From assembly GCF_036199905.1 (NCBI RefSeq), contig NZ_CP108109.1, positions 4,201,501 through 4,265,500 of the forward strand: a stretch of DNA of 64,000 bases, in the 5' to 3' direction. The stretch is from Streptomyces sp. NBC_00223. GTDB taxonomy: Bacteria; Actinomycetota; Actinomycetes; Streptomycetales; Streptomycetaceae. Position 1 is the first letter of the stretch. Every line of letters begins with the position of its first letter. Shown here piece by piece: positions 23,258 to 25,756 of this stretch. A program made the translations under genes and the position numbers. The notes below the pieces were generated by a model. That model was not told where the DNA came from. It searched no databases and saw only the letters and a list, made by a program, of their open reading frames with translations.

Positions 23258-23276
23258 CGCCCTTCGGCGCGAAGGA

Positions 23277-23312
23277 ACGGAGGGCCGGACGTGTGGACGT
23301 CCGGCCCTCCGT
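23277..23312 (+). terminator. Terminator of dehydrogenase operon 2
   Basis: ACGGAGGGCCGGACG (23277-23291) pairs perfectly with CGTCCGGCCCTCCGT (23298-23312) across a six-base TGTGGA loop, 20 bases after the E2 stop. A 15-bp stem of this strength is a convincing terminator. Confidence 0.88.
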
Positions 23313-23360
23313 CTGCGTGTTGACCGTACGGGCCCGCCGGTCTGTGCTGCCATCGGCCGT

Positions 23361-23555
23361 ATGGTCGTCTCCGTCTCCGTCGTCCTGTTTCTGGCGCTCA
23401 TGGCCGTGCTGCTGATGCGCAACCGGTCGCTCAAGCCGAGCCACGCGGTGCTCTGCGCGCTGATCGGCTTCTGCCTCGCCTCCACCGGCCTGGCGCCGAC
23501 GATCCAGTCCACCCTGGTCTCGACGGCCGACCTGGTCAGCACCATCAGGCCCTGA
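23361..23555 (+). CDS. Small two-helix membrane protein
   Basis: A 64-residue hydrophobic protein. Helix 1 (VSVVLFLALMAVLLM) is separated by RNRSLKPSH from helix 2 (AVLCALIGFCLASTG), with a polar tail ending TADLVSTIRP. I recognise no function; similar short proteins occur in streptomycetes, some encoded on mobile plasmids. It lies alone between a terminator and a DinB-like gene. The ATG is preceded only by GGCCGT, so ribosome binding looks weak. Reading frame and hydrophobic pattern argue that it is real. Confidence 0.65.
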   Translation: MVVSVSVVLFLALMAVLLMRNRSLKPSHAVLCALIGFCLASTGLAPTIQSTLVSTADLVSTIRP

Positions 23556-23710
23556 CCCCGCCGCCGCTCAGCCACTCGGCGCGCCCAACTCCCGCACGAA
23601 GACATCGGCGTGGGCGCTCGCCGGTACGCTCGATGCCCCCTGGTACGTTCCCCCCACCTTGCCCATGCCCGCGCTGTCCCACAGCGGCAGGCGAAAGGAC
23701 CGGTGGACCG

Positions 23711-24241
23711 GTGACGATCGAGCACGGCTGGCAGAGCCTGACGCTGACCCTTTTCCGGCGGGTCCGCCGTGAGTTCGTCGCGGCCGTCGAGGGCCTGACC
23801 GACACCGCTCTGGAGCATCGGCTCACCCCGGCCACCAACAGCGTCGGGTGGCTCGCCTGGCACATCGCCCGGGGCCAGGACCGCAATCTGTCCGAGCTGA
23901 CCGGCTTGCCGCAGCTCTGGCTGACCGACGGCTGGGCGGACCGGTTCGGGCGCCCGGCCGATCCGGCCGACACCGGATTCGGTCACTCGGCCGCGGCGGC
24001 CGCCGCCTTCCGGAGTCCCGGCGGGGCCACGCTGCTCGCCTACCAGGAGGCCGCGCACGGCATCGCCGAGCGCTGTCTCGCGGCCGCGCCCGACGGAGAC
24101 CTCGGGCGGGTGGTGGTCAGCGTCACGCTGGGGAACGCGCACAGCGTGGCGGACCGGCTGGGCGGCCAACTGGACGACTGCTTCGCCCACCTGGGGCAGA
24201 TCGCGCTGTTGGAGTCGCTCAGGGCCGGGGACCCCAGGTGA
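23711..24241 (+). CDS. DinB/DUF664-type mycothiol-transferase-like protein
   Basis: A 176-residue four-helix-bundle protein. The motif WLAWHIARGQDRNL carries the first metal His of the DinB/DUF664 superfamily, and the C-terminal helix has DDCFAHLGQIALL with another. Family members use mycothiol or bacillithiol as thiol cofactors. The GTG at 23711 is used because the conserved start (WQSLTLTLFRRVRREF) follows it. Its last 23 bases overlap the convergent signal-peptidase-like gene. The substrate is unknown. Confidence 0.78.
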   Translation: MTIEHGWQSLTLTLFRRVRREFVAAVEGLTDTALEHRLTPATNSVGWLAWHIARGQDRNLSELTGLPQLWLTDGWADRFGRPADPADTGFGHSAAAAAAFRSPGGATLLAYQEAAHGIAERCLAAAPDGDLGRVVVSVTLGNAHSVADRLGGQLDDCFAHLGQIALLESLRAGDPR

Positions 24242-24938
24242 CGGTGGGGGTGGGGCGGGGGGTGCGGCGGACGCGGCGGGTGCGGGACCAGAGGACGAGG
24301 GACGTGACCAGGGACGCGAAGGCGGTCAGCGCGGCCAGGAGCATCACCACGAAGTACGGCACCAGCGCGTTCACACCGGGCTGGGCCCGGCCGATCACCT
24401 CTGCCACCGGGACGGTTCCGTCGTGCTTGGACAGGTGCATGCGCGAGTCGACCGAGTCGGTCCGGTCGTCGGCGAGCAGGAAGATCCGCCCCTGCGGGAC
24501 CCGTATGTCCACGGCATACGGGCCGTTGGAGACACCGCGGTAGAGATACGGCTCGTCGACGTCCTCGCCGTTGACCTGGAGCGGGCCGCCCGCGCCCAGG
24601 ACGACATGGTCGCCGCCCACGCCGATCACCCGCCGCAGCGTGTTCATGGGGTCCGGGTTCCAGCCCGTGATGGAGACGTAGACCACGTCCCCGCGCCGGA
24701 CGCCGGCGCCGCCGCCCTTCCGCACGGCCACCTCGGTACCGGCCGGGAAGGTCGGCCGCATCGTGCCGCTGGTGGTCCGCAGCACCTTGTACCGCTCCCG
24801 CGACAGACCGAAGGCGCCGCCAGCCACCAGCACGCCCACCAGGGTGATCACCAGGGCGACCACCAGCTCATGGCGCACCGGCCGCGCCGCCGCCGGAACC
24901 TCCACGCCCTCGCCCACGTGCTCTTTCGTGTCCGACAC
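24219..24938 (-). CDS. Signal peptidase I homologue with altered catalytic dyad
   Basis: A 239-residue S26-family membrane protein. Helix 1 (LVVALVITLVGVLVAGGAF) precedes box B, read here as TTSGTMRPTF: the nucleophile Ser of the usual SGSM is Thr59. Box D, usually KRVIG with the general-base Lys, reads RRVIGVGGD, with Arg102 in place of Lys. Box E (LADDRTDSVDSR) is intact and a second helix lies near the C-terminus (FVVMLLAALTAFASLVTSL). It keeps the fold but may not cleave signal peptides. GTG 24938 follows a GGGAAGGGCGGG; longer starts would put Arg-rich junk in front. It overlaps the convergent gene by 23 bases. Confidence 0.82.
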   Translation of the reverse strand: MSDTKEHVGEGVEVPAAARPVRHELVVALVITLVGVLVAGGAFGLSRERYKVLRTTSGTMRPTFPAGTEVAVRKGGGAGVRRGDVVYVSITGWNPDPMNTLRRVIGVGGDHVVLGAGGPLQVNGEDVDEPYLYRGVSNGPYAVDIRVPQGRIFLLADDRTDSVDSRMHLSKHDGTVPVAEVIGRAQPGVNALVPYFVVMLLAALTAFASLVTSLVLWSRTRRVRRTPRPTPTVTWGPRP

Positions 24939-25009
24939 GTTCCCGCCCTTCCCCCGCCGCCCGCTCACCGGGCGGCATCCGGAGGGCATCGTAGGGCCGC
25001 CTCCCGGAA

Positions 25010-25041
25010 CGTCCGAATCGCGGACCGTCCGAATCGCGGAC
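25010..25041. repeat. Perfect 16-bp tandem duplication
   Basis: CGTCCGAATCGCGGAC occurs twice head to tail (25010-25025 and 25026-25041), followed by a further CGTC. Each unit contains an inverted repeat GTCCG-N5-CGGAC. It lies between the signal-peptidase-like gene and the GntR gene, just upstream of the GntR promoter region. Confidence 0.85.
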
Positions 25042-25054
25042 CGTCTTACGCCGG

Positions 25055-25086
25055 GATACATGTTGTATCTATGATGTGCGCATCAT
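25055..25086. promoter_or_regulatory. Two adjacent palindromes over the gntR start
   Basis: GATACA-TGT-TGTATC (25055-25069) is a perfect inverted repeat of the kind bound by FCD-type GntR proteins, and ATGATG-TGCG-CATCAT (25071-25086) follows after one base, running into the start codon. Both are AT-rich islands in GC-rich DNA. Autoregulation of the gntR-MFS operon is the likely role. Confidence 0.6.
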
Positions 25087-25756
25087 GGATGCCACCGTCG
25101 CCGCGCCGCCCGCCGCCCCCAAGTCACCGCCCGCCGCCGAGCGGGTCTACCTCCACGTCAAGTCCGGTGTGCTCGACCGCAGTTACGAGGGCGGCACGCT
25201 GCTGACCGAAGGGGACCTCGCCGACGCGGTCGGGGTGTCCCGTACGCCCGTGCGCGAGGCGCTGCTGCGGCTGGAGGCGGAGGGCCTGCTCAAGCTCTAC
25301 CCGAAGAAGGGCGCCCTGGTGCTGCCGGTCTCCGCGCAGGAGATCGCCGACGTCGTGGAGACCCGGCTGCTGGTCGAGCGGTACGCCGTGGCCAAGGTGG
25401 TCGGCGCGGCGCCCGCCGAGCTGATCACACGGCTGGAGGACTCGCTCGCCGAGCAGCGCGGCCACGCGGAGGCCGGCGACCTCGCCGCCTTCGCCGTGGC
25501 CGACCGCTGCTTCCACGCCGAGATCGTCCGCGCGGCCGGCAACCGTATCCTCGCCCAGCTCTACGACCAGCTGCGCGACCGGCAGTTGCGGATGGGCGTG
25601 GCCACCATGCACGCCGTGCCCAGCCGGGTCGCGAAGAACATCTCCGAGCACGCCGAGATCCTCGAAGCCCTGCGCGGCGGCTCCGCCGACACCGCCGCGC
25701 GGCTGGTGGACCGGCATGTGTCCTGGGTCAAGACGCTGGCCCGGGGCGAGTCGTGA
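25085..25756 (+). CDS. GntR/FadR-type (FCD) repressor
   Basis: A 223-residue regulator. The winged HTH reads LTEGDLADAVGVSRTPVREA and the C-terminal all-helical FCD domain includes ADRCFHAEIVRAAGNRILAQ and a late NISEHAEILEAL, which carry the Asp/His metal ligands typical of organic-acid-sensing members. The ATG at 25085 was preferred; a GTG at 25076 adds three residues. Palindromes overlap the start, so it probably represses its own promoter. The stop overlaps the start of the MFS gene (GTGA), which marks that transporter as its target. Confidence 0.88.
   Translation: MDATVAAPPAAPKSPPAAERVYLHVKSGVLDRSYEGGTLLTEGDLADAVGVSRTPVREALLRLEAEGLLKLYPKKGALVLPVSAQEIADVVETRLLVERYAVAKVVGAAPAELITRLEDSLAEQRGHAEAGDLAAFAVADRCFHAEIVRAAGNRILAQLYDQLRDRQLRMGVATMHAVPSRVAKNISEHAEILEALRGGSADTAARLVDRHVSWVKTLARGES

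What the first reader, a model, noticed from the sequence alone, without database searches (positions are those of the whole stretch)
24219..24938. Signal peptidase homologue lacking both canonical catalytic residues
In type I signal peptidases the nucleophile is the Ser just before Met in SGSM and the general base is the Lys of KRVIG. Here these are Thr59 (SGTM) and Arg102 (RRVIG). Box E (DDRTDSVDSR) and membrane helices are kept, so the fold is maintained by selection. It may be a pseudo-peptidase binding signal sequences or pre-proteins, or use an unusual Thr/Arg mechanism.
Basis: partly seen in the sequence, partly recalled or inferred. Interest (0 to 1): 0.6.

Follow-up and report, generated by a model that had tools for sequence, protein, structure and literature searches.

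The report
Probably dead signal peptidase paralogue
A membrane protein with the fold of the enzyme that trims export signals off secreted proteins has lost the residues that do the cutting, and it belongs to a large family of such probably dead enzymes in Streptomyces-type soil bacteria whose job is still unknown.

Summary
The minus-strand ORF 24219-24938 encodes a 239-residue type I signal peptidase (SPase I, Pfam PF10502) homologue with Thr59 for the Ser nucleophile and Arg102 for the Lys base. AlphaFold gives the SPase fold with two membrane helices (mean pLDDT 90). This is not a private mutation. A tree with the catalytic columns masked puts the window in a 69-row clade of Streptomycetaceae (100/100). 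Lys survives in 9 of 69 rows and Ser in 45 of 69, against 182/182 and 181/181 in the canonical Sips, while fold positions stay invariant. The two orthologues at the same locus read Ser/Met and Asn/Met. The host keeps four canonical sip genes elsewhere. Most likely it is a catalytically dead SPase paralogue that still uses its remodelled cleft to bind exported polypeptides, like Streptococcus SipA. Lack of SPase chemistry is very likely; the binding role is inferred. Against it: the gene evolves fast, sits in a variable slot, occurs there in 3 of 35 congeneric genomes, and has no conserved partner. A Thr/Arg mechanism is unsupported. Dead SPases are known in Firmicutes, so this is a new variant of a known kind.

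The parts
24219..24938 (-). CDS of the S26-family (type I signal peptidase) homologue, 239 aa, GTG start
   Evidence: codon usage score 123 with an in-house gene caller, which extended the start to 24968
24798..24881 (-). N-terminal membrane helix, residues 20-47
   Evidence: hydropathy; helix 22-49 in the AlphaFold model
24762..24764 (-). Thr59 codon (ACG), position of the catalytic Ser
24633..24635 (-). Arg102 codon (CGG), position of the catalytic Lys
24441..24473 (-). box E, ADDRTDSVDSR, with Ala156 in place of the invariant Gly
24285..24380 (-). C-terminal membrane helix, residues 187-218
   Evidence: hydropathy; helix 189-224 in the model
24219..24284 (-). basic, Pro-rich, predicted cytoplasmic tail ending TVTWGPRP plus stop; a short Pro/Trp tail recurs in the clade
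23711..24241 (+). convergent neighbour, DinB_2 / mycothiol-transferase-like protein, overlaps the S26 gene by 23 bp; not part of the conserved locus
25076..25756 (+). divergent neighbour, GntR-family regulator with FCD domain; conserved right border of the variable slot

Best explanation
The gene encodes a membrane-anchored paralogue of type I signal peptidase that no longer cleaves signal peptides. Shown by sequence: the nucleophile, the general base and the Gly beside the base are all replaced, and loss of the dyad recurs across a whole clade. Shown by prediction: the SPase fold, with its beta-rich core outside the membrane and a helix at each end. Inferred: the protein keeps a modified peptide-binding cleft and works by binding, not cutting. 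It would hold or shield an exported polypeptide as it leaves the translocase, as S. pyogenes SipA is proposed to do, while the four canonical Sip enzymes of the same genome do the cutting. The client is unknown. Lack of SPase activity: about 0.9 likely. The binding role: about 0.6 likely, given that it is dead.
For: Thr59, Arg102 and Ala156 in the sequence. The clade is one side of a branch at 100/100 with the three catalytic columns masked, 69 clade rows and 14 outgroup rows. Retention in the clade against canonical rows: Lys 9/69 v 182/182; Ser 45/69 v 181/181; helper Ser (E. coli Ser278 position) 52/69 v 184/184. In the same rows M60, G83, R103, D110, E129, Y131, V147, P148, D157, R159, D164 and G174 are 69/69. 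Positions lining the S1 pocket are remodelled: Pro at residue 56 kept in 10/68 v 181/181, and the residue at the Leu95 position is aromatic in 66/69 but aliphatic in 181/181; Pro87 and Leu95 line S1 in E. coli (PMC2259416, passages). Model mean pLDDT 90.1; best matches SpsB 4wvi Z 16.9 (rmsd 2.0, 129 residues) and SipA 4n31 Z 16.7 (rmsd 3.9, 134 residues). [quoted passage not shown] Crude omega in the clade is near that of canonical Sips, median 0.54 (176 pairs) v 0.46 (1332 pairs). In 26 of 62 clade neighbourhoods the gene lies at one conserved Streptomyces locus beside CDF and manA. Four canonical sip genes stay in the own genome.
Against: No client or partner gene is conserved: the window gene stands alone between unrelated genes. 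It is 43-48% identical to its orthologues, while the genes of the conserved block next to it are 70-91% and the three canonical Sips compared in the same genomes 63-85%, so constraint on this gene is weak. Its pairwise omega to the two orthologues is 0.67 and 0.89, though inflated by saturation and GC bias. An intact frame alone is weak evidence: 20% of neutral simulations had no stop. Nine of 69 clade rows keep Lys and 8 of 69 keep both Ser and Lys, so not every member need be dead. The S1 pocket changes could also mean that the cleft no longer binds signal peptides.
Confidence: 0.6

Rival explanations
1. It is a decaying accessory paralogue. Once the Lys was lost, the clade drifted under weak constraint and the window copy has no important function; its intact frame and fold are remnants.
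For: Fast evolution against neighbours and canonical Sips, loss of two positions that are at least 95% conserved in the clade (G156, G202), patchy presence at a variable slot, 3 of 35 genomes.
Against: 27 of 29 clade-conserved positions are kept; omega in the clade is close to that of canonical Sips; 26 of 62 neighbourhoods show one retained locus across many Streptomyces species; twelve fold positions are 69/69.
Confidence: 0.27
2. It is an active protease with another mechanism: Thr59 as nucleophile, with Arg102, a substrate group or another residue as base.
For: Thr can act as a nucleophile in other hydrolases (recalled); Ser57 and Ser162 are kept in the window protein; 8 of 69 clade rows keep Ser and Lys.
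Against: T/R occurs once in 69 rows. Position 59 is A, N or G in 22 of 69 rows. Arg is not a plausible general base at neutral pH (established chemistry). Ala156 replaces the Gly beside the base. No Lys or His conserved in the clade but absent from canonical Sips was seen.
Confidence: 0.05
3. It is a regulator or decoy of the canonical Sip enzymes, for example by forming heterodimers or by competing for pre-proteins at the translocase.
For: Same fold as SPases and membrane helices at both ends; coexists with four canonical Sips in the own genome.
Against: No data on interaction; the gene is far from the sip cluster (C1:4.23 Mb v 6.31 Mb) and clade members were seen in a minority of the genomes searched.
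Confidence: 0.12

Closest known systems
SipA (LepA) of Streptococcus pyogenes pilus loci, PDB 4n31 / 4k8w
   Same: SPase I fold; both catalytic residues replaced (Asp48, Gly85); box E Gly replaced (Asn140); membrane anchored; no peptidase activity found (PMC4049620, passages; section 9).
   Different: SipA lies in a pilin-sortase locus; the window gene does not. The replacing residues differ. The window protein has a second, C-terminal membrane helix, which is not described for SipA in the passages read. Sequence identity 22-25% to 4n31.
SpsA of Staphylococcus aureus
   Same: SPase I paralogue lacking the two conserved catalytic residues beside an active enzyme in the same genome; dispensable (PMC12445088, passages).
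   Different: Sits beside the active spsB gene (recalled), whereas the window gene lies about 2 Mb from the sip cluster. No function is assigned to SpsA in the passages read.
SipW/X/Y/Z of Streptomyces lividans (canonical SPases; PMC8724576, passages)
   Same: Closest active paralogues; same S26 domain, box C and box E; membrane helices at both ends (recalled for S. lividans).
   Different: Canonical rows keep Ser and Lys in every row with a residue (181/181 and 182/182) and form the other side of the tree.
186 phage repressor CI (LexA-like superfamily)
   Different: A repressor of the other family in that superfamily; a parallel, not a close relative.

Membership tests
Type I signal peptidase S26A, as an active enzyme | Ser nucleophile in box B (SxM) | tested here: not met
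   Thr59
Type I signal peptidase S26A, as an active enzyme | Lys general base in box D | tested here: not met
   Arg102
Type I signal peptidase S26A, as an active enzyme | Invariant Gly of box E beside the base | tested here: not met
   Ala156; Gly in 184/184 canonical rows
Type I signal peptidase S26A, as an active enzyme | SPase I fold and membrane anchor | tested here: met
   predicted model and matches to SpsB, SipA and E. coli SPase; hydropathy
Type I signal peptidase S26A, as an active enzyme | Cleaves pre-proteins | not testable with these tools
   needs an assay
Catalytically dead SPase I homologues (SipA/SpsA kind) | SPase fold with both dyad residues replaced | tested here: met
Catalytically dead SPase I homologues (SipA/SpsA kind) | Pilin/sortase locus (SipA proper) | tested here: not met
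   13 neighbour proteins in 17-33 kb were scanned with Pfam; 12 gave matches, none of them a sortase or pilin; the 64-aa protein at 23361 gave none
Catalytically dead SPase I homologues (SipA/SpsA kind) | Binding function without cleavage | not testable with these tools
   needs cleavage and binding assays
Streptomycetaceae clade of dyad-degenerate S26 proteins (defined here) | Groups with the clade when the catalytic columns are left out | tested here: met
   69 rows, 100/100; window with two orthologues 100/97
Streptomycetaceae clade of dyad-degenerate S26 proteins (defined here) | Aromatic residue five positions after the nucleophile site | tested here: met
   Phe64 in the window; Y/F in 66 of 69

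The most novel reading that the evidence does not exclude
Streptomycetaceae carry a previously undescribed family of membrane-anchored pseudo-signal-peptidases. An ancestral paralogue lost its general base, kept the fold, and rebuilt the S1 end of its cleft with a conserved aromatic residue to become a binding factor for exported proteins. In some lineages it took up particular clients (for example beside RHS-nuclease/SUKH genes), and a few lineages may have regained the Lys, so that the family moves between dead and armed states.
Probability: 0.3. Interest if true: 0.65.

Novelty: new variant of a known kind. Interest (0 to 1): 0.42.

Why it matters
Dead signal peptidases are known to me mainly from single Firmicute proteins. 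A whole clade in genetically tractable antibiotic producers, with members that have lost both, one or neither dyad residue, makes it testable what a signal peptidase fold does without catalysis. It also warns annotators: this gene passes the curated cut-off of 'signal peptidase I' although it almost surely is not one, which matters for work on protein secretion.

Tried and rejected
Sequence error or private mutation: rejected, because the same positions are changed in independent genomes. Thr/Arg catalysis: considered and not supported (see rivals). A new general base elsewhere: looked for a Lys or His conserved in the clade but not in canonical rows and saw none. Operon or partner logic at the window locus: rejected. 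The slot between the bkd operon plus a 64-aa gene and gntR-MFS holds different genes in different genomes, or none, and the MST-like neighbour gave no match in the two orthologous loci. RHS/SUKH association: seen for a few Ala/Gln or Ala/Arg members (Pfam on one locus) but not for the window. dN/dS for the window gene itself: uninformative because of saturation. The neutral-stop argument was too weak to use. The Trp-containing tail motif is enriched (40 of 69 clade v 17 of 184 canonical), but the looser count of any Trp in the last 16 residues also catches membrane-helix ends of canonical rows (27 of 184), so no function is claimed. The genome-contig scan with the single protein found nothing. 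In one search many weak rows (flagellar, LexA, others) were read as common arrangements or the wider superfamily and not pursued.

Literature: the searches listed no paper that I recognised as being about this clade; the library holds open-licence PMC papers only, so absence there is weak.

Sampling caveats: rows were gathered by similarity to the window protein or its relatives, so the residue counts are not population frequencies. ORFs under 140 or over 450 aa and duplicates were dropped before the tree (280 names, 253 kept, 251 with residues at either site).

Full report
What is there. The minus-strand ORF 24219-24938 encodes 239 residues from a GTG start. It scores 74.9 bits against PF10502 Peptidase_S26 and 68.2 bits against the equivalog TIGR02227 signal peptidase I, both above the curated cut-offs, so automatic annotation would call it signal peptidase I. 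Thr59 (codon ACG) and Arg102 (codon CGG) stand at the nucleophile and base positions. The box E Gly is Ala156. PMC4049620 (passages) states that a side chain at this Gly in E. [quoted passage not shown]

Fold and topology. Hydropathy gives membrane helices at about residues 20-47 and 187-218. AlphaFold2 on a 57-row alignment (window, 38 other clade rows and 18 canonical rows) gives mean pLDDT 90.1 with helices 22-49 and 189-224 around a beta-rich domain. Foldseek and VIA-align place it with SpsB (4wvi, Z 16.9, rmsd 2.0 over 129 residues), SipA 4n31 (Z 16.7, rmsd 3.9 over 134) and E. coli SPase (1t7d, Z 15.7, rmsd 2.0 over 130).

The window genome. The own genome (one contig, 7.96 Mb) has four canonical S26 genes in a cluster at C1:6310750-6314009, the window gene, and one weak sixth match. 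The genus matches species that NCBI names Actinacidiphila and some named Streptomyces, inferred from identical S26 matches in named contigs.

Relatives. A genus search covered 35 genomes. The ten best loci other than the window (L008-L017) carry S, A, N or T at the Ser position and mostly M, E, Q, R or L at the Lys position; two of the ten carry K. With named contigs and 249 family genomes, 253 distinct S26 proteins were aligned, 251 with residues at either site. A FastTree of the 251 rows splits them into 69 rows with the window and 182 rows that are all Ser/Lys apart from one gap at the Ser position. IQ-TREE with positions 59, 102 and 162 masked, on 69 clade and 14 outgroup rows, keeps the clade at 100/100 and the window with its two orthologues at 100/97. 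On that tree the presence of Lys needs at least 7 changes and of Ser at least 12, so losses (or regains) recurred; the direction is not resolved.

Which positions gave way. In the clade the Lys position is Q38 R10 K9 E5 L3 and others, of 69; the Ser position is S45 A18 N3 T2 G1; the helper Ser is S52 A17. The matching canonical counts are 182/182, 181/181 and 184/184. Twelve fold positions named in the evidence field are 69/69. Of the 40 columns that are at least 90% one residue in canonical rows, the Lys column is the second least retained; the others most changed are residues 143, 87, 56, 168 and 88. Residue 56 (E. coli Pro87) and residue 64 (E. coli Leu95, by counting from the aligned Ser) line the S1 pocket according to PMC2259416 (passages). 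So the S1 end of the cleft is rebuilt, not only disarmed. A further 30 loci from an order-level search (293 genomes) gave 14 repeats of known rows, one without a pattern hit, and 15 new ones, of which 13 lack Lys and 2 are Ser/Lys; these were not placed on a tree.

Where the genes lie. Of 69 clade proteins, 63 had a neighbourhood of 5 kb or more and 62 could be read. In 26 the gene faces a CDF transporter gene with manA next to it, mostly with sahH or a PTS gene on the other side where the contig reaches; this is one conserved Streptomyces locus, mostly Ser/Gln. These gene names are my reading of the sequences; Pfam was run on the PTS protein of one locus only. Other members lie in varied places. 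Four are near a large RHS-like gene and five near a SUKH-like gene; Pfam confirmed RHS repeats, a nuclease domain and SUKH for one of these loci. The window type lies between the bkd operon plus a 64-aa gene and a gntR-MFS pair. That border is conserved in the genus (gntR in 35 of 35 genomes), but the interval varies: in 8 of the 30 loci fetched the 64-aa gene lies within 140 bp of gntR, and other genes fill it elsewhere. The S26 gene was found there in the window, G009 and G034 only. Clade members of any kind were seen in 13 of 35 congeneric genomes and in at least 33 of 249 family genomes; both are lower bounds from best hits.

Constraint. The window S26 protein is 43-48% identical to the two orthologues, the genes of the conserved block beside it 70-91% (a kinase gene further out matched at 55-58% outside the block), and the three canonical Sips compared in the same genomes 63-85%. 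Crude NG86 omega has median 0.54 in the clade (176 pairs) and 0.46 in canonical Sips (1332 pairs); I take strong GC bias to inflate both. The window keeps 27 of 29 positions that are at least 95% conserved in the other 68 rows. The family is therefore constrained about as canonical Sips are by this measure, but the window copy evolves fast and its own omega cannot be read (0.67 and 0.89, saturated).

Mechanism. Shown: loss of nucleophile, base and adjoining Gly in this protein, and loss of the base in most of the clade. Predicted: fold and topology. Inferred: no signal peptide cleavage (about 0.9), and a role in binding exported polypeptide at the outer face of the membrane (about 0.6 given deadness). 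The precedent is SipA, essential for pilus polymerisation without peptidase activity (PMC4049620: abstract and passages; section 9). SpsA of S. aureus is a second inactive paralogue, dispensable (PMC12445088, passages).

Verdict. The reading as a pseudo-peptidase is favoured, the Thr/Arg enzyme is not. As a kind it is known; the actinobacterial clade, its recurrent loss of the base and its aromatic S1 residue are new to the searches I made, in a library of open-licence papers only.

Noticed in passing
window 25060-25090: TTGTATCTATGATGTGCGCATCATG around the start of the gntR gene; a GATG...GCATCA core was found in 26 of the 30 loci fetched. It looks like a promoter with a leaderless start and an operator for the regulator itself.
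   Followed up: partly
window 23361-23555: 64-aa membrane protein with no Pfam match, conserved at 48-79% identity near gntR and, where held, the bkd E2 gene in other genomes of the genus.
   Followed up: no
window 23258-25075: Variable gene slot in the genus between the bkd operon and gntR-MFS: empty, or holding different genes in different genomes.
   Followed up: partly
L063, L164, L155, L044, L093: Ala/Gln or Ala/Arg clade members beside SUKH-like genes, four of them also near an RHS-like gene; RHS, nuclease and SUKH domains confirmed for L164 only. A possible client link.
   Followed up: partly
L071, L081, L136, L140: A well-supported group with both Ser and Lys nested among Ser/Gln rows: either a regained Lys or repeated losses around it.
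   Followed up: no
L006 (own genome C1:5703457-5703621): Sixth S26 match of the genome, a short protein with GPSMAPT and VKR, so Ser and Lys are present; resembles nickel superoxide dismutase maturation proteases (recalled, not tested).
   Followed up: no
window 23711-24241: DinB_2/mycothiol-transferase-like gene convergent with and overlapping the S26 gene by 23 bp; no match in the two orthologous loci.
   Followed up: no
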